Shown piece after piece: positions 1,180 to 10,638 of a stretch of 35,943 bases of DNA. The first letter of the stretch is position 1. Each line of letters opens with the position of its first letter. The stretch comes from Planctomycetia bacterium TMED53. Its GTDB lineage: Bacteria; Planctomycetota; UBA8108; UBA1146. The notes beneath the pieces were generated by a model that saw only the letters and a program-made list of their open reading frames with translations, was not told the origin of the DNA and did no database searches. The stretch covers positions 1 to 35,943 of the forward strand of contig NHDG01000055.1 of assembly GCA_002167285.1 (NCBI GenBank), read 5' to 3'. The translations under genes and the position numbers were made by a program.

Positions 1180-2361
1180 ATGATGGCGGCCTCAGTCACC
1201 CTGCTTTGCTTTCTCGGGGTCAGCATCTGCGATTCCCTCGACTGCACTCACGACGGCCCTCATGAATGCTCACCGGCACCCCGAATCCTCCTCTCCAGGC
1301 CCCCCTTCATGATCAACCTCGCTCCCCACCCCAATGCTCGTCTGCAGCAGAAAATGGAAGGTGGTGAGGAAAATCTGACGCTGTTGCTGCATGCCGGAGC
1401 AGGAATGGATACTTCAGGTGGGGGCTTTCATCCGCGGGTTGCCCTCCGTGCTGCCGCAAAATTGTTCACTCCTTCATCGATCGGCCCATCTCCCATCATC
1501 GCAACGGCGGCAATTGGGGGATCTTGCAGCGTGATCCAGCTGCGATATCCCCCCCCATGGCGTCGCAAAGTATTGAGGTCGATTCGGCAACTGACCACCG
1601 AAGGCCCCGATCTGATCGATATCAAAGAGGCACTTGCCGCAGAAACTGCCGATGCCGAGTCAAGCTGCCGCTGCCTCTCTGACTGCTGCTGCAGCGCCAT
1701 CGACAGGAGCATCTATCAAGCGATTGAAGCTTTCGATCCTCTACCCCACGGGGCCACACGATCAGGAAATCGTTTGCGCCTTCATCGGGTGAGTGAAATC
1801 ACCGTTAAAGAATGGTCACGTGAATTCTTCACGGGTGGCTGGATTCACATCAATATCGATCAACCGCACGTCCATCAAAGTTATCGCGCCATCATCATCG
1901 CGGACATCATTCATGGACTTGGAGAGATCCGTTTCAATGAAAGGCCTCCTTTGAGGCCCAGCTTGCGATCGATACTTCGTGCACCCACCTCACTCCAAGG
2001 AGAGGCCCCTGGTCACTCTCATCATCATCAAAAGAATCTCATCGAAATCTCAGTTAGACCGGCTCCGCTCTTCGATCGTTCTTCAAAGGCACGGTCGGCA
2101 AGCTACTTGGAAGAGAAGATCGAGGTCACAATTCTGCCGATTCCAAGGACGGCAACTCTGCGACAGGCGCAACTGCTGCTTCACTCTCTTCGACTGAAAA
2201 ACCATTGGATCCGCCGAAAATTGATGGCTCCGCAACCCCCCCATTACTTATCGGAATTACCCACATCGGCATTTCATTGGTATTCGCGCTTCAGGGCATG
2301 GGAATCGAGGGTTTCCGAACCCATCGACAAGACGCCATTACGCTTTAAATATCCCCGATAA
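1180..2361 (+). CDS. Divergent M16-peptidase-like protein, no zinc motif
   Basis: 393 aa. The start is supported by AAAGGAG placed 4-7 bases before tandem ATGs (1180 and 1183). I do not recognise it by strong sequence identity. The layout resembles an M16 (pitrilysin/insulinase) domain: a strand followed by HAGAGMD and a helix with FHPRVALRAAAKLF where active enzymes have HxxEH. Later comes FDPLPHGATRSGN, then a helix and FFTGGWIHINI, like the HPYG...FY.P.N..I segment of M16 proteins. No HxxEH is present, so peptidase activity is not expected. It contains an odd Cys-rich stretch (CRCLSDCCCSAID). It is the first gene of an operon; the next gene starts 27 bases later and a second M16-like gene follows that. 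Family assignment is an inference from pattern; that the gene is real is more certain. Confidence 0.6.
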   Translation: MMAASVTLLCFLGVSICDSLDCTHDGPHECSPAPRILLSRPPFMINLAPHPNARLQQKMEGGEENLTLLLHAGAGMDTSGGGFHPRVALRAAAKLFTPSSIGPSPIIATAAIGGSCSVIQLRYPPPWRRKVLRSIRQLTTEGPDLIDIKEALAAETADAESSCRCLSDCCCSAIDRSIYQAIEAFDPLPHGATRSGNRLRLHRVSEITVKEWSREFFTGGWIHINIDQPHVHQSYRAIIIADIIHGLGEIRFNERPPLRPSLRSILRAPTSLQGEAPGHSHHHQKNLIEISVRPAPLFDRSSKARSASYLEEKIEVTILPIPRTATLRQAQLLLHSLRLKNHWIRRKLMAPQPPHYLSELPTSAFHWYSRFRAWESRVSEPIDKTPLRFKYPR

Positions 2362-2388: not shown

Positions 2389-5300
2389 ATGATCTATGCA
2401 AAGATGAAGGCTTCTGTATTTATAAATTTTTCTGAAGTGATGGCAGCAATGTTCAAGGTAACAGATTCCCCAGAGCCGGATCCTGATTCTGTGGATCCTG
2501 ATCGCGTAGATCCTGAGGAATCTGATCCCCCCAAAAAGCTACTGGTCTGGCTGACACAAGCGCTTCTGCTTCTGGGATTCATCATTGGTTGCGGTTGCAT
2601 CTTGGCATTGCTACTCGGCTTTCTCGCTGCGGCCTTACTCTCCCTATACTTCGTCATCGAGAAACTTTGGCTCTTCGCTACCGCCGAGGCCCCCGTATCT
2701 GACATGGGTTGGGTTTGGCTGGGAATCCTCTCGGTCGGCTTTTTTGTCGGAATGTTCTTCTTATTGCTCAGCCGGGCTCAAGCTGAATATGCGAAGGTTG
2801 TGGGGAAGACCGAGAATGACTCTGATATGAGTGATGATTTAGACGAAGAAGACGTCGATTCCAACATGGGAGAAGAGTTTGAAATCTATGGAGTGCAGAT
2901 CTATGAGCACCCCTACGAGCGGTTTAAAAACAGGTTAAAAGAATCCGGCAAAGAATCAGAGCTGAGAGAAATCGCCTATGATCTGAATGATTATGCGGAG
3001 AGCACTGCAGCACTGGCCGTCTTGGGAGATGACGAATTCATCGGCATCCCCGTCAAAGCCGATGCACAGATTTTTGTCTCGGATGATCAACCGTATGAAT
3101 TCAATATTTTGGCAGCACGAATTATGCTGCGAAGATCGGAATCGCTCACACTCTTTTGGGTGATCACCAACTGGTCCTGGGAAGATGAAAACTTCATCAA
3201 GCTGATTTGCGATCACCGACATATTCTCGAAGATCGAGTCGCCTTCGACGAAGAACTTCCACAATACGTCGAGGTCATCCGGGAGATCCCTGAAAAGGAT
3301 GATGCACTCGAAAGCATCGCAAAAATTCTCAATGAAGAAGAAGTAAGTAGACTCAGAGAGGCGTTAACGATGAATGAGCTCGAAGGAGTTTTCGAGTGGT
3401 GGGCTGATAAAACCACCGAAGAACAAAATAATCTGCGAAAGTCGCCTTTAGTCGGCTGTCAAAACGATCGCCTCCTTTCGATCACCGAACGTTTCGAAAT
3501 GGATAACCCAAGATCTCTGCTTATCGGCGGAGAAGCTGGGGTAGGCAAGAAAACCATCGCTCAAGCAGTACTTTGTCACCTCCAGGATCAGGGCTGGGCA
3601 GTGATGGAATCGACCGCTCAGGATTTGATCTCCGGCACGATGTTCGTCGGCCAAATGGAAGAGCGCTGGCTGAAGATTCTATCAAAACTTCAAGAACCAA
3701 AAACGGTGCTCTACATTCCAGATTTTGCTGGGCTCGAACATGCCGGCAAACATATGCAAAACCCTGTGGGCCTCTTGGATCGGCTCAACATCGAAGTGAA
3801 TCGAAATCGAATCACCGTCTTGGGCGCACTCGAAGATACCGATATGGAGAGGATGCTGCGGAATAATGCCTCTTTGAGAAAGTACTACGATATCGAAAAG
3901 GTGACCGCTCCAGCTGCTGAGGAGGCCGCTGAAATTCTTCGCAACCATTCTCAACAGGTTCAAGGAGAAACGGGAATTCAAACTGGCGATGATGTCATCA
4001 AGATGATTGTCGAACTCAGCAGTCAGTTCATGCCATTTCAAGCCGCTCTTGGGGGATCCTTCGACCTTCACGCAGCAATGGTTCGCAAGAAGCAAAAGAA
4101 CAAAGAGAAAGATACGATCGTCGATCTGAGCCGCGAAGATGCGATCGAAGAATTGTGCAGATTCTCGGGACTCCCAAAAGTTCTCGTCGATGAAAAAGAA
4201 ATCCTCGATACAGACGATGTAGAAAACTTTTTCAAAGACCACCTCATCGGTCAGGAAGAGGCGATCCAGTGCATGGTTGATCGGATCACCCTACTCAAAG
4301 CGGGGCTTACCGATTCAACTCGTCCACTGGGAGTGTTTTTCTTCGCCGGTCCCACCGGAACCGGAAAAACCGAGAGCGCAAAAGTTCTCGCCCAGTATCT
4401 GTTTGGCTCCAAAGAACGCTTATTGCGAATCGATATGAGTGAGCTGCAATCCTACGATGATCTCAGTCGCCTCTTTGGCTCTAATCGCGGATTAGAAGGA
4501 CACCATCAACGCAGCCTCCTCGATGGCATCCGTAACCAACCTTTCAGCGTGGTGCTTCTCGACGAATTTGAAAAAGCGCACCCCAATGTTTGGGATCTTT
4601 TCTTGCAAGCCTTCGACGACGCCCGCATGACCGATGCCAATGGTCACACCGTTTGTCTGAAGCACGTCGTGTTTATTCTGACCAGTAATGTTGGAGCCCG
4701 AGAAGCCTCCCAGGGTTCATTCGGATTCAAAAGTGCTGGTGGCCCCGAGAACCCTTACGAAATCGCCCTGAAAGAAACATTCCGACCGGAGTTCCTCAAT
4801 CGCATCGATCAGATCGTGACCTTCCGCCCCTTCTCACGTGCGGAACAACGGGCACTTCTGGAGATGGAATTGAAGCGGGTCCTTTCAAGACGAGGATTAA
4901 AAGATCGGCCCTGGGCGGTCGAGTGGGAAGAGTCGGCCATCGACTTGCTCCTTTCCCACGGCCTGACCGCAGACCTCGGAGCACGCCCCCTGCGTCGTGC
5001 GGTCGAGCGATTCGCCTTGACTCCCATCGCCAAAGAGATGTTGGTTCACGACAATCCACAAGAGGATCAATTCCTCTTTGTTCGTGGTGAATACGGCAAG
5101 ATCGTTGTCGATTTTGTCGATCCGGATGCTGCGGAACAGGAAGCCGCTGAGGCAGAGCTCACAGAGGTTCCAAGAATGTCGCTGGATTCAGAGGCAGATC
5201 GGGCACCTCGATTGCAAGTTCCATACATCGCGATGCGAGGATCCGGTCGACTTGAGGAAGTGATGGTTCTCGCCGACAAGGTCGAACTGCTCGAACAGCG

Positions 5301-6102
5301 CCTTGAATCAGAAGAATGGGCCACGTCGCGACAGTCAGATCTCAAGAGTATGGAAGTCGCCGGCTTCTGGGAAGATCCTCAACGTCTACCAGTTCTCGCT
5401 CGAACAGAGCTTCGTGATCGAATCGACAACGGAACATCCACGGCACGATCTCTCCTCGATCGATTGTCGGGCAATGCTGAAACTTCCCGAGATCACTACC
5501 CACAGGGATTGATTCAACGCTTGGCGCAACAGATCTATCTCCTTGACCATGCGGTCGAAGTTCTCGAAAAGGATCTTCCTCAAGATGCTTACTTGCGCAT
5601 TCAACCGGTGCAGCGCAATAAGGAATCTGCAGCCGAGCAAATTGAATGGTGCTCTCGACTGAGAAAAATGATCGTCGAGTGGGCAGAGATGCGAAACATG
5701 CATTTGGAAGAACTCTCTCATGATTCGTCGGGGAACTGGCTCGTCGCTGTGACCGGCTACGGCTCATGGTTGTTCTTGAACCCCCTCGATGGCCTCCATG
5801 AATTGGAACAACCGGAAGCGCACCATAAGGATCGCAAGATTCATGCGCGGATTTCTGTCGCTTCTCAGCCGCTGGGGTTACCGCCTGCAGTTCGAGAAGA
5901 TCGAATTCGAAGGGCAACGACTCTTCTGGATGAGTCTGCGAGAGCCGATGAAGTCATCCAGCGCTACCGATTGGACCCTGAGCCGAAATTGGTTAATCTG
6001 CAAAACGGGTGGCGCTTTGCGCAGCCAGAAGATGCCCTGAATGGCAATTTTGACCTGGTCGCCAGCTGGGCTTCGACACGACATCCTTCGGAAAGTCGCT
6101 AA
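2389..6102 (+). CDS. Membrane-anchored Clp/Hsp100 ATPase with RF2-like C-terminus
   Basis: 1237 aa. Order of parts: an acidic Asp-Pro-rich tail (about 26-48); hydrophobic membrane segments at about 50-85 and 106-127; a charged middle region; AAA domain 1 with Walker A GGEAGVGKKT (380-389) but Walker B ending IPDF (D445), not DE; AAA domain 2 with GPTGTGKT (654-661), LLDEFEKAHP (D725), sensor 1 TSNVG and the ClpB-type small domain with GARPLRRAVE. From about 950 to the end it matches peptide chain release factor 2: a helical domain with FWEDPQRL, a PCRF-type part (YLRIQP at 1068; WAEMRNMHLEEL), and the RF2 C-terminal tail (RYRLDPEPKLV...GWRFAQPEDALNGNFD, 1193 on). The SPF motif is absent. Only about 27 residues (1162-1188) stand where RF2 carries its GGQ domain. 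Domain 2 should be an active unfoldase motor; domain 1 is probably weak or dead. The start has AAAAGGA very close to the ATG; ATG 2404 is an alternative. Confidence 0.93.
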   Translation: MIYAKMKASVFINFSEVMAAMFKVTDSPEPDPDSVDPDRVDPEESDPPKKLLVWLTQALLLLGFIIGCGCILALLLGFLAAALLSLYFVIEKLWLFATAEAPVSDMGWVWLGILSVGFFVGMFFLLLSRAQAEYAKVVGKTENDSDMSDDLDEEDVDSNMGEEFEIYGVQIYEHPYERFKNRLKESGKESELREIAYDLNDYAESTAALAVLGDDEFIGIPVKADAQIFVSDDQPYEFNILAARIMLRRSESLTLFWVITNWSWEDENFIKLICDHRHILEDRVAFDEELPQYVEVIREIPEKDDALESIAKILNEEEVSRLREALTMNELEGVFEWWADKTTEEQNNLRKSPLVGCQNDRLLSITERFEMDNPRSLLIGGEAGVGKKTIAQAVLCHLQDQGWAVMESTAQDLISGTMFVGQMEERWLKILSKLQEPKTVLYIPDFAGLEHAGKHMQNPVGLLDRLNIEVNRNRITVLGALEDTDMERMLRNNASLRKYYDIEKVTAPAAEEAAEILRNHSQQVQGETGIQTGDDVIKMIVELSSQFMPFQAALGGSFDLHAAMVRKKQKNKEKDTIVDLSREDAIEELCRFSGLPKVLVDEKEILDTDDVENFFKDHLIGQEEAIQCMVDRITLLKAGLTDSTRPLGVFFFAGPTGTGKTESAKVLAQYLFGSKERLLRIDMSELQSYDDLSRLFGSNRGLEGHHQRSLLDGIRNQPFSVVLLDEFEKAHPNVWDLFLQAFDDARMTDANGHTVCLKHVVFILTSNVGAREASQGSFGFKSAGGPENPYEIALKETFRPEFLNRIDQIVTFRPFSRAEQRALLEMELKRVLSRRGLKDRPWAVEWEESAIDLLLSHGLTADLGARPLRRAVERFALTPIAKEMLVHDNPQEDQFLFVRGEYGKIVVDFVDPDAAEQEAAEAELTEVPRMSLDSEADRAPRLQVPYIAMRGSGRLEEVMVLADKVELLEQRLESEEWATSRQSDLKSMEVAGFWEDPQRLPVLARTELRDRIDNGTSTARSLLDRLSGNAETSRDHYPQGLIQRLAQQIYLLDHAVEVLEKDLPQDAYLRIQPVQRNKESAAEQIEWCSRLRKMIVEWAEMRNMHLEELSHDSSGNWLVAVTGYGSWLFLNPLDGLHELEQPEAHHKDRKIHARISVASQPLGLPPAVREDRIRRATTLLDESARADEVIQRYRLDPEPKLVNLQNGWRFAQPEDALNGNFDLVASWASTRHPSESR

Positions 6103-6185
6103 GAGCTTCATAGGTCTGCCCAACTCTTGTTGATCTCCAGGGCGATTTTTCGTCAGATGGGGAGATCGAAGGGGAATGCAGCGTG

Positions 6186-7640
6186 ATGAATCCTAATCTG
6201 GGAACTCCAAACCTCAGTAATAATCCAAGCCGCAGTAATCCAAGCCGCAGCAATCCAAGCCGCAGTAATCCAAGCCAAGGACAAGGCGGATGGAAAGCTT
6301 GCTTCCTCCTGCTTGCTTTTGGTTTGCTCTGCTTTGCAGGGAGCTGGGCGTTGGGATTCAGGGCTGCTGCCAAGGGGTCACCGGCGATCGCAGCCGCGGA
6401 AGTGAAACCCACAGTCCTACGGCAATCTCCTCGCCAAGTTTGGTATCCCTTAGATAACGGATTGCAGTTTGGGTCTCTGCCTCTTCCCTCCTTCCTTCCC
6501 GAAGAAGAACAACGCGCCATCATCATTACCAGTTGGAATGTCGGCTCTCTTCACGATCGAGAAGGAGGTTCCGGAAGAACCCACTTGTTGGCGGAACTAC
6601 TCCGAAGATCACACAACACTCCTTCTGCAGAAGGAGAGGTGCTGGTTGGAACTCATCGAACCTGGTTCATCGAAAAAGTGCCGCCAAAAGATGTCACGGA
6701 GCACCTAAAAAAGATCCTCGATCGAATCGAGTTTCAACAGACGGATGCTTCCCTTTTGGGAAGGGTTCGAGGCGACCTGCTGGCGCAGCAAAAGAAACAA
6801 CGCGCAGAGCTCGTTACTGGTTTGCAAGATCGTGTCCTGGATCGTCTCAGCGCACTTCAGTCTGGGCCTCGAGGGCAATATCAACTGGGTGACTTCAATT
6901 TGGATAACCTGGATCAAGTTCGGCGCGAACTGTTCACTCCCGCAAATTTACACATCGCCATCGTCGGGCCCCACGACCCGGCTCCCACCCTTGAAATTGC
7001 TAAAACCAGATTCGGCAAGATTACTGCAGGAAAGCCCAATCAAAAGATCCCCAACGCAAAACTCCTCAATGGAGAAATCGGCGTCAAAAGAAACAAAAGC
7101 GGCATTCCAGGCGCCATCATTCGTAGCTGGCGAGTGCCGGCTCCCGGATCAGAGCAATCGCTGGCTCTTGGATTGTTGATTCCGCGATTGATCCGCTTCC
7201 TTGATTCAGAGGGTGCGAAAATTATTTGGGAGCCGAAAATCGAGCCTGAACAGTTGAGCGTTTTGATTCCCATTCAACCCGGAGAACTGGATGCAAAAAC
7301 AGCGCTCCTCGCCGCAAGAGCTCGAATGGATGCTGCTGTCGCCTATGCCTTAAGGCCAGACGTCGAGATGAGCGACATGCAGTATGCCCGCAAAACCATG
7401 GGTGGAATCTTGGGGATCTCCAGGGTCCATGACGAAACTTCGATGTACGACCCCATGCCCGCAGCAGAAGCATTGATGATTCAAAGATTGCAGAATGTCG
7501 ATGAGCGTAAGCTGGTGAATCAATTTGGCAGAAACGTCGCTGAACAATTGAATCAATTGGAAACGAATTACATCTCGCCAAAATTGTCGGTCACAGGCAT
7601 TGTGATCCCTACTCAACCTGCGAAGAATTCGAAGCCTTAA
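6186..7640 (+). CDS. Membrane-anchored M16-like protein, inactive zinc site
   Basis: About 484 aa. GTG 6183 and ATG 6186 are adjacent; ATG is preferred, with GGGGA ten bases upstream. The N-terminus is a low-complexity Asn-Pro-Ser-Arg repeat, then one hydrophobic helix (about 40-60), so the bulk is probably outside the cytoplasmic membrane. After it comes the M16 opening pattern: YPLDNGLQFGSLPLP, then ITSWNVGSLHDREGGSGRTHLLAELL, equivalent to the LDNGL...GS.DEP.G..HLLEHLLF of active enzymes. HxxEH has become HLLAE, so the metal ligands are not conserved. The second half keeps the M16 signature LFTPANLHIAIVGP, then a further domain to residue 484. It lies 80 bases after the Clp-RF2 fusion gene and is probably cotranscribed. 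The 3' end nearly touches the convergent decarboxylase gene (8 bases between them). Confidence 0.8.
   Translation: MNPNLGTPNLSNNPSRSNPSRSNPSRSNPSQGQGGWKACFLLLAFGLLCFAGSWALGFRAAAKGSPAIAAAEVKPTVLRQSPRQVWYPLDNGLQFGSLPLPSFLPEEEQRAIIITSWNVGSLHDREGGSGRTHLLAELLRRSHNTPSAEGEVLVGTHRTWFIEKVPPKDVTEHLKKILDRIEFQQTDASLLGRVRGDLLAQQKKQRAELVTGLQDRVLDRLSALQSGPRGQYQLGDFNLDNLDQVRRELFTPANLHIAIVGPHDPAPTLEIAKTRFGKITAGKPNQKIPNAKLLNGEIGVKRNKSGIPGAIIRSWRVPAPGSEQSLALGLLIPRLIRFLDSEGAKIIWEPKIEPEQLSVLIPIQPGELDAKTALLAARARMDAAVAYALRPDVEMSDMQYARKTMGGILGISRVHDETSMYDPMPAAEALMIQRLQNVDERKLVNQFGRNVAEQLNQLETNYISPKLSVTGIVIPTQPAKNSKP
6222..6276 (+). repeat. 15-bp tandem repeat inside coding sequence
   Basis: The unit AATCCAAGCCGCAGT occurs three full times plus ten bases, with one T/C change. 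It encodes the Asn-Pro-Ser-Arg-Ser linker before the membrane helix of the M16-like protein. Fifteen bases keep the frame, so copy number can vary without breaking the gene. Confidence 0.9.
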
Positions 7641-9079: not shown

Positions 9080-9249
9080 TCCAGCCCCGATTCCTTTAAA
9101 GAGGTCCTTTGATTGAAAACCCGGCAAGGTTCTATCGCCATGAAGATTTGACGAATTTATCCACCTCATCGTTCTTGTCATGAACAATCGGTGCAAGGGA
9201 AGAAAGATTTGGCTAAACTGCCATGCGTGGCAGAAGGAGGAAGATCCAA

Positions 9250-10638
9250 ATGGCTGATCGAACTACATTCCCAGACCCGATGGAGATCTGGAACTATCTG
9301 GAGCAACAAGTCCGCGGCCAAGAGCACGCAAAGCGGGAGCTCTCGGTTGCAGTCTACAATCACTATCTGAATCACCATCTTTTCAGCGACACCAAACCTC
9401 AGGGGCAACACCTTCTTCTCGCTGGTCCAGAAGGTGTGGGAAAGACATATCTGGTACAGAAAACTGCTGAGTTTTTGGGAGTCCCATGGATCCAGGTTGA
9501 CGCCTCTTCGCTGGTTCAACCCGCACTCTCAGGGCAAGCCTTAGAGGGAATTACAGACGCCCTCCTTCACCGATCTGGTGGAGATCTCAATCTCGCCCAA
9601 CTCGGGATCGTATTGGTAGACCGACTAGACCATTGCCTACGAACGAGCACCTCTCCAGGCGATCCAGGCTTGGCAGTTCAGGAAGCTCTTATCACTCTCA
9701 TGGATGGGGTCATCTTGCGGCACAAAGAGGATCCGCAAAATCAGCTCGATACATCAGGGTTGCTTTTCATCTGCTGCGGAGCATTCCCATGGATTCAGGA
9801 TGCCGTTGAAGAGCGACTTGAAGAAGGCACTCGAATCGGATTTCAAATTGACGAACAACCGAGTGACTCGGTTCAAATGCGTGACTTGATTCAAAAGAGC
9901 GATCTCGTGACCCTTGGCCTGAGTGATGAACTGGCATCTCGATTCAATAAGGTGTCGCTACTGAGCCAGCTGACCTCTTCAGACTTCGTTCATCTGTTAA
10001 AAGATATGGATAATGGAATCCTCGGGCAGAAAAAACTCTTCTGGAAAGCCCATGGGATTGAACTCGCATTTACAGATGCCGCTCTTCAAGCCATCGCAGA
10101 GATTGCGACCCAAATGGGAGATGGCGCCCGCGCTTTAAATAGTCTCGTCGAAAAAGTGCTCGATCCGATCGATCATCGAATCGCTGAGCTCTCCAGAAAA
10201 GGTGTGTGCAGAATCGAGTTTGATCGTGAACATATCGAATCAGGTACCCTTCCTAAACTTGAAGAAGGTGGGGTCGATTCTCCCCTGGAAAATCTCCTAC
10301 AAAGTGTTTGGTCAGAGTTCCAATACGACGCCCAGGAAGAATCGAACGACATAATTCCCATCGAGCCTGCAATTATGGCGATGCCGATTTCCAATGTTAC
10401 AGCAGCCCTTGACCAGCTTGAGCTTTCCATGGGTCGACTCGCATTAACCTCAGATCAGGATAAAACCTGGAGGCAAATTCGTAGAGGGTACGGCGGCGAA
10501 GGCCAAAGAATCATTCTGCAGTTGCTGGCGAGAGCACAACAAGCGGGGGTTTCTCTTTCTTTCCTCTGTGAATCAATACAGCAGAGCGGGGGAGACCTGC
10601 TCACGGCACTGAAAAATATTGAAGGCTCCCAGCGCTGA
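9250..10638 (+). CDS. ClpX-like AAA+ protein with defective Walker B
   Basis: 462 aa from ATG 9250, chosen because AAGGAGG ends nine bases before it; an upstream ATG at 9223 lacks such a site. It aligns by pattern with the ClpX ATPase core: IWNYLEQQVRGQEHAKRELS, Walker A GPEGVGKT (59-66), GIVLVDRLDHC (116-128 region), a QEALITLMDG helix, LLFICCGAF (ClpX has ILFICGGAF) and sensor 2 GARALNSLVEKVL. Walker B reads VDR, so the catalytic Glu of ClpX's IDE is Arg. The N-terminal zinc-binding domain of ClpX is absent. From about 375 there is a helical C-terminal domain I do not recognise. Probably binds ATP but hydrolyses it poorly. It is not the cell's housekeeping ClpX. A strong hairpin follows the stop codon. 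Confidence 0.85.
   Translation: MADRTTFPDPMEIWNYLEQQVRGQEHAKRELSVAVYNHYLNHHLFSDTKPQGQHLLLAGPEGVGKTYLVQKTAEFLGVPWIQVDASSLVQPALSGQALEGITDALLHRSGGDLNLAQLGIVLVDRLDHCLRTSTSPGDPGLAVQEALITLMDGVILRHKEDPQNQLDTSGLLFICCGAFPWIQDAVEERLEEGTRIGFQIDEQPSDSVQMRDLIQKSDLVTLGLSDELASRFNKVSLLSQLTSSDFVHLLKDMDNGILGQKKLFWKAHGIELAFTDAALQAIAEIATQMGDGARALNSLVEKVLDPIDHRIAELSRKGVCRIEFDREHIESGTLPKLEEGGVDSPLENLLQSVWSEFQYDAQEESNDIIPIEPAIMAMPISNVTAALDQLELSMGRLALTSDQDKTWRQIRRGYGGEGQRIILQLLARAQQAGVSLSFLCESIQQSGGDLLTALKNIEGSQR

What the first reader, a model, noticed from the sequence alone, without database searches (positions are those of the whole stretch)
5240..6102. Release factor 2 remnant fused to a membrane-anchored Clp ATPase, with the GGQ domain cut out
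Seen: after the ClpB-type small domain, residues about 950-1235 follow RF2 in order: a helical domain with FWEDPQRL, YLRIQP...WCSRLRKMIVEWAEMRNM like the PCRF part, then RYRLDPEPKLVNLQNGWRF...PEDALNGNFD like the RF2 tail (SYVLDPY..VKDLRTG.ET.N...VLDGDLD). The GGQ domain, which lies between these in RF2, is replaced by about 27 residues, and SPF is gone. Known: RF2 domain 1 and domains 2/4 contact the ribosome; domain 3 releases the peptide. Inference: a ribosome- or nascent-chain-docking adaptor on a membrane unfoldase, perhaps clearing stalled secretion substrates. I cannot tell whether this architecture has been described.
Basis: partly seen in the sequence, partly recalled or inferred. Interest (0 to 1): 0.88.

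Follow-up and report, generated by a model that had tools for sequence, protein, structure and literature searches.

The report
Dead release factor fused to Clp ATPase
In several bacterial families of the phylum Planctomycetota, a copy of the protein that ends translation (RF2) has lost its stop-codon reading and peptide-releasing parts and has become the tail of an ATP-driven Clp-type machine; the one in this window has also lost the whole catalytic domain.

Summary
The ORF at 2389-6102 (1237 aa) is a two-ring ClpC-like AAA+ protein whose last ~290 residues are collinear with RF2. A single-sequence search barely shows it (prfB E=0.001). The family profile finds RF2 at E=2.9e-9, and Foldseek of the predicted fold returns RF1/RF2 as all of the top 50 PDB hits. 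Relatives make the case. At least 38 of 392 Planctomycetota genomes, in 14 GTDB families, encode the fusion. Most of these (group B) keep a whole RF2 (E=3.9e-52), but GGQ, SPF, the helix-5 tip and the switch loop are lost in all. The window belongs to a well-supported clade (group A, 100/100) nested among them, in which domain 3 is deleted. Genuine prfB is present elsewhere in the same genome. Family-wide, the Clp part keeps D2 Walker A and B, sensor 2 and a [LIVF]GF ClpP-type loop, but has lost the D1 Walker B acids and the D2 GYVG pore loop. Membrane segments occur only in some group A members. I read it as an ATP-driven remodeller carrying a pseudo-release-factor docking module. Ribosome docking is plausible but undemonstrated, and clearing secretion substrates is unsupported. 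I found no published description.

The parts
2389..6102 (+). Fusion gene, 1237 aa: predicted membrane segments + helical N-domain + AAA D1 + AAA_2 D2 + ClpB_D2-small + RF2-like C-terminus (true start may be Met-20, base 2446)
   Evidence: conserved ORF in congeners
2560..2769 (+). Predicted transmembrane segments, residues ~58-96 and ~109-127
   Evidence: Kyte-Doolittle scan only; absent from group B members
2881..3378 (+). Helical N-domain, residues ~165-330; group B equivalents score as HEAT_2
   Evidence: AF2 helices at pLDDT ~70-84; Pfam HEAT_2 in group B
3529..3552 (+). D1 Walker A (GEAGVGKK), altered last residue
   Evidence: alignment
3637..3654 (+). D1 pore loop (TMFVGQ), aromatic kept
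   Evidence: alignment
3712..3726 (+). D1 Walker B site (YIPDF in place of FIDEL): catalytic Glu lost
   Evidence: alignment; lost in all members aligned
4348..4371 (+). D2 Walker A (GPTGTGKT), intact
4477..4515 (+). D2 pore-loop site: GYVG of ClpC absent (GSNRGLEGHHQRS)
   Evidence: absent in all members aligned
4555..4581 (+). D2 Walker B (LLDEFEKAH), intact
4717..4734 (+). SFGFKS at the position of the ClpC/ClpX ClpP-docking loop ([LIV]GF in most members)
5104..5223 (+). Linker between the D2 small domain and the RF2-like part (residues 906-945)
   Evidence: alignment A2
5224..5577 (+). RF2 domain-1-like helical part, residues 946-1063, with GFWEDPQR
5578..5874 (+). RF2 domain-2-like part, residues 1064-1162; no GGTE helix tip, no SPF
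5875..5958 (+). ~28-residue segment replacing RF2 domain 3 and switch loop (residues 1163-1190)
5959..6066 (+). RF2 domain 2/4 C-terminal part, QRYRLDPEPKLVNLQNGWRF..ALNGNFDL (residues 1191-1226)
6183..7640 (+). Neighbour: 485 aa protein with hydrophobic N-terminus and M16_C 'inactive' domain; homologue next to the fusion in 5 relatives (opposite strand in 2 of them)

Best explanation
Shown: a ClpC-derived two-ring AAA+ protein gained a whole RF2 at its C-terminus in Planctomycetota. The RF2 part lost the stop-codon-reading and peptide-releasing motifs, and in the window's clade lost domain 3 altogether, while its scaffold (domain 1 and domain 2/4) stayed under purifying selection. Inferred: the pseudo-RF2 is a docking module. 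It most likely brings the ATPase to ribosomes or a ribosomal state, with domain 1 towards the L11 stalk as in RF2 and no stop codon needed. D1, which keeps its pore aromatic but should not hydrolyse ATP, holds a target; ATP hydrolysis in D2 drives remodelling or release; the [LIVF]GF loop may hand the target to ClpP. In the window's clade the machine also sits at the membrane.
For: RF2 homology. All fusions one clade beside RF2 (100/100), the domain-3-less clade nested inside with or without domain-3 columns. Lost in 29/29 fusions: GGQ, SPF, GGTE tip, switch loop; kept: FW, G[LVI]H, R.Y, VL.G in nearly all. Motif states of the Clp part are uniform. In the RF2-like part pN is far below pS (0.111 v 0.741; 0.013 v 0.219). 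Genuine prfB is present over the cut-off in 19 of 21 fusion genomes. In RF2, domain 1 contacts the L11 stalk, and SPF is not needed for ArfA-mediated release (PMC5378476).
Against: No direct evidence of ribosome contact. All decoding-centre contacts that RF2 uses are lost, so the scaffold may be reused elsewhere. Loss of the D2 pore loop argues against ordinary threading. FGF in the window deviates from [LIV]GF. No phylum-wide conserved neighbour points to translation.
Confidence: 0.42

Rival explanations
1. The RF2 scaffold was co-opted as a generic protein-binding or assembly module: an adaptor that recruits substrates or orders the hexamer, with no ribosome contact left.
For: All codon-reading and catalytic elements are lost in every member; the branch leading to the fusions is long (1.2 changes per site); conserved residues are mostly of the scaffold.
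Against: Selection kept the whole RF2 domain order, and in group B even domain 3, which a generic adaptor would not need.
Confidence: 0.33
2. It belongs to a conflict or defence-type ATPase system, in which HEAT repeats sense something and the pseudo-RF2 targets or protects the translation machinery.
For: Patchy distribution within the phylum and both groups present within families f35 and f62; HEAT repeats; tandem GYVG-less Clp relatives with a diverged RF2-like tail; a near-identical recombinant tract between two congeners.
Against: PADLOC matches only through the general Clp AAA domain; neighbourhoods show no defence genes apart from one SLFN-g3 helicase neighbour in one locus; no plasmid record covers 80% of a D2+RF2 query.
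Confidence: 0.15
3. A regulator of true RF2: the pseudo-RF2 titrates or remodels RF2 partners (PrmC, RF3, an ArfA-like factor).
For: Partner surfaces on domains 1 and 2/4 could be kept.
Against: PrmC acts on domain 3 (GGQ), which is dead in group B and missing in group A; the switch-loop aromatic used by ArfA (PMC5378476) is lost.
Confidence: 0.06
4. Artefact: chance resemblance, decaying pseudogene or mis-joined ORF.
For: Weak single-sequence score; one MAG copy (L056) carries in-frame stops.
Against: Profile, fold and tree evidence; the same fusion as an open frame in more than 30 genomes, with pN well below pS.
Confidence: 0.01

Closest known systems
Class I release factor RF2 (prfB; TIGR00020, PF03462 PCRF + PF00472 RF-1)
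   Same: Same domain order and fold for domain 1 and domain 2/4; FW, G[LVI]H, R.Y and VL.G signatures kept; tree puts the fusions beside RF2, not RF1
   Different: No GGQ, SPF, GGTE tip or switch loop; domain 3 deleted in the window clade; fused to a Clp ATPase; a genuine prfB coexists
ClpC/ClpA (class 1 HSP100)
   Same: Two AAA modules, D2 Walker A/B, sensor 2 GAR, loop with [LIVF]GF, D1 pore aromatic
   Different: D1 Walker B acids lost; D2 GYVG loop deleted; HEAT-like N-domain (membrane segments in some) in place of the Clp N-domain; RF2-like C-terminus
PrfH / ArfB-type release factor paralogues
   Same: Examples of class I RF offshoots (PrfH seen as a weak hit)
   Different: Those keep GGQ and domain 3 (from general knowledge); here these are what is lost
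Tandem GYVG-less Clp-like proteins of Planctomycetota (L120, L122-L125, this work)
   Same: Nearest Clp relatives; C-terminus matches the RF2-domain-2-like part of group B (96%, E=2.3e-9)
   Different: Two or three adjacent genes, N-termini unlike HEAT, RF2 likeness limited to ~130 residues

Membership tests
Class I release factor RF2 | Sequence/fold homology over domains 1 and 2/4 | tested here: met
Class I release factor RF2 | GGQ motif in domain 3 | tested here: not met
   14/14 RF2 rows GGQ; 0/29 fusions; domain 3 absent in 10/10 group A rows
Class I release factor RF2 | SPF codon-recognition motif and helix-5 GGTE tip | tested here: not met
   0/29 fusions
Class I release factor RF2 | Switch loop with conserved W/F before RSY | tested here: not met
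   0/29 fusions
Class I release factor RF2 | Ribosome binding / peptide release activity | not testable with these tools
   needs experiment
ClpC/ClpA HSP100 unfoldase | Two AAA+ modules and D2 small domain | tested here: met
   Pfam AAA_2 E=1.2e-43, ClpB_D2-small 2.1e-9; TIGR02639 aligns 329-886 but far below its cut-off
ClpC/ClpA HSP100 unfoldase | Catalytic Walker B in D1 | tested here: not met
   YIPDF; acids lost in all members aligned
ClpC/ClpA HSP100 unfoldase | Catalytic Walker A/B in D2 | tested here: met
   GPTGTGKT, LLDEFEKAH
ClpC/ClpA HSP100 unfoldase | GYVG pore loop in D2 | tested here: not met
   deleted in all members aligned
ClpC/ClpA HSP100 unfoldase | ClpP-docking loop [LIV]GF | tested here: inconclusive
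   [LIV]GF in nearly all relatives, FGF in the window and its close relatives
ClpC/ClpA HSP100 unfoldase | Clp N-domain | tested here: not met
   no Clp_N hit; HEAT_2 in group B
Known anti-phage defence family | Dedicated PADLOC model match beyond the shared AAA domain | tested here: not met
   best DolB/PDC-M37B, only over the D2 AAA stretch

The most novel reading that the evidence does not exclude
A previously undescribed ATP-driven machine that uses a dead release factor to dock on ribosomes, at the membrane in some lineages, and to remodel or extract what sits there, independently of stop codons.
Probability: 0.3. Interest if true: 0.9.

Novelty: new variant of a known kind. Interest (0 to 1): 0.72.

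Why it matters
Release factors have given rise to rescue factors that keep the catalytic domain. Here the opposite happened: catalysis and codon reading were stripped, the scaffold kept, and the result welded to a Clp ATPase. The graded series (whole but dead RF2, then domain 3 deleted) lets one ask which RF2 surfaces remain under selection once termination is gone, and whether Planctomycetota have an ATP-driven ribosome quality-control factor. Carriers found here are mostly draft metagenome-derived genomes, which may be why it has gone unremarked.

Tried and rejected
Chance match: rejected by profile, fold and tree. Pseudogene: rejected (open in relatives, pN<<pS). Displaced true RF2: rejected, prfB is at G000:C44. 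Frameshifted prfB joined to clp: rejected, the same fusion occurs in many genomes. Operon-based function: neighbours are not conserved beyond subgroups. L072 (860 aa ORF) looked like a fusion with intact GGQ but is ordinary prfB in a long open frame. PADLOC: only AAA-domain matches. Full-length AF2 model: pTM 0.35, so no domain arrangement was read from it. Literature searches for the architecture found nothing; the library lacks most subscription journals.

Full report
WHAT IS THERE. The window lies in a Planctomycetota genome (G000, 2.98 Mb, 83% complete; relatives are mostly named Planctomycetota MAGs). The ORF at 2389-6102 encodes 1237 residues: predicted membrane segments, a helical N-domain, two AAA+ modules, the ClpB D2 small domain and a ~290-residue C-terminus.

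IS THE RF2 LIKENESS REAL. With the window sequence alone it is marginal: Pfam gives no PCRF hit and NCBIfam gives prfB at E=0.0011 over residues 31-181 of the C-terminal piece. With nine family members prfB hits all nine (best 2.2e-7) and PCRF five (best 2.6e-6). A profile of the nine finds RF2 chains first in the PDB, E=2.9e-9, and aligns the RR(Y)..L.GDFD tail to RF2 residues 322-355. An AlphaFold2 model built on only seven sequences has mean pLDDT 60 and pTM 0.58, but the domain-2 core reaches ~92, and Foldseek against the PDB returns RF1 or RF2 for all of the top 50 hits, best E=1.2e-7.

RELATIVES CHANGE THE PICTURE. A phylum scan with the window-clade profile, the full-length profile and a second profile shows long ORFs with Clp and RF2-like parts in at least 38 of 392 genomes from 14 GTDB families; this is a lower bound, because only a few candidates per genome are scored. 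They fall into two groups. Group A (window genus and family, plus f24, f30 and single genomes of f35 and f62) lacks domain 3. Group B (22 strong hits) keeps a complete RF2: the 17-row profile A5 matches RF2 chains at 3.9e-52 over the full length, Pfam PCRF scores exceed the gathering cut-off in all six group B proteins scanned, and A1 aligns with A5 at 99.7%, E=3.9e-25, leaving a gap exactly at domain 3. In the alignment GGQ is present in 14/14 true RF2 rows and 0/29 fusions (often xGR in group B); SPF, the GGTE helix-5 tip and the switch-loop aromatic are lost in all; FW, G[LVI]H, R.Y and VL.G remain in nearly all.

TREE. In a tree of RF1, RF2 and fusions (51 rows) the fusions form one clade (100/100) on the RF2 side with a long stem (1.2). 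Group A is one clade (100/100) that shares a supported fork (100/99) with one part of group B, so it is nested in group B; dropping the domain-3 columns gives the same nesting (97 SH-aLRT). The D2 tree also groups the fusions (SH-aLRT 93; two rows labelled 'other', L056 and L111, are fusions I had not marked). The simplest history is one fusion of a whole RF2, loss of its activities, then one deletion of domain 3. The true prfB is a separate gene in the window's genome (G000:C44) and scores over the cut-off in 19 of the 21 fusion genomes.

THE CLP PART. Compared with the window genome's own ClpC-like proteins, every member aligned has: a D1 Walker A-like loop (last residue altered in several group A members) with the Walker B acids lost; a D1 pore loop usually with its aromatic; intact D2 Walker A and B; the D2 GYVG pore loop deleted; GF at the ClpP-loop position, preceded by L, I or V in most and by F in the window's relatives; sensor-2 GAR. 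GYVG loops transmit pulling force and IGF loops dock ClpP (PMC7112952). A remodeller with D1 gripping and D2 firing is therefore likelier than a standard threading unfoldase; this is inference. Predicted membrane segments are found in part of group A only; group B N-domains are HEAT repeats.

SELECTION. In three congeneric pairs the RF2-like part has pN far below pS (0.111 v 0.741, 0.013 v 0.219, 0.022 v 0.116), so it is maintained.

MECHANISM. In RF2, domain 1 contacts the L11 stalk, SPF reads the codon, Trp319 of the switch loop contacts A1492, and ArfA-dependent release does not need SPF (PMC5378476). The fusions keep domain 1 and the 2/4 scaffold and lose the rest. Docking to the ribosome without a stop codon is my preferred reading (0.42), against a generic adaptor (0.33) and a conflict system (0.15). 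No step of the docking has been shown.

NOVELTY. Six literature searches found no description of the architecture, though the Pfam domains of group B would let a database list it. It fails membership of RF2 (GGQ, SPF) and of canonical ClpC (D1 Walker B, GYVG), so I call it a new variant built from two known kinds.

Noticed in passing
window 2950-4940 (residues ~188-850) versus L017: Between two congeneric species this stretch of the fusion gene differs by 0-9% at the DNA level (mostly 0-3%), while both ends differ by 22-58% and neighbouring genes by ~27-33%: a recombination or gene-conversion tract covering N-domain, D1 and D2 but not the RF2-like part or the membrane segments. A MAG chimera was not excluded.
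   Followed up: partly
L120:2074-10861, L122:5340-14268, L123:1-6899, L124:5225-13000, L125:3-7221: Two or three adjacent GYVG-less Clp-like AAA+ genes in other Planctomycetota; at least one C-terminus per cluster carries a diverged RF2-domain-2-like stretch (hhalign 96%, E=2.3e-9 to group B). Some N-termini look HicB-like by eye. The Clp-RF2 kinship may be wider and older than the family described.
   Followed up: partly
window 9223-10638 (+): A second AAA_2 + ClpB_D2-small protein (471 aa) two genes downstream of the fusion.
   Followed up: no
window 1180-2361 (+): 393 aa ORF directly upstream of the fusion, no Pfam hit, conserved at the same place in four congeners.
   Followed up: no
L063, L066, L068-L070, L113, L114, L118, L119: In this part of group B the lost GGQ is replaced by a recurrent (x)GR at the loop tip (RGR, GGR, KGR, VGR, TGR), suggesting the dead domain 3 still has a conserved tip.
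   Followed up: no
L056:7356-11531 (G046): The fusion gene of this MAG is interrupted by in-frame stops; a close relative (G209, L058) is open.
   Followed up: no
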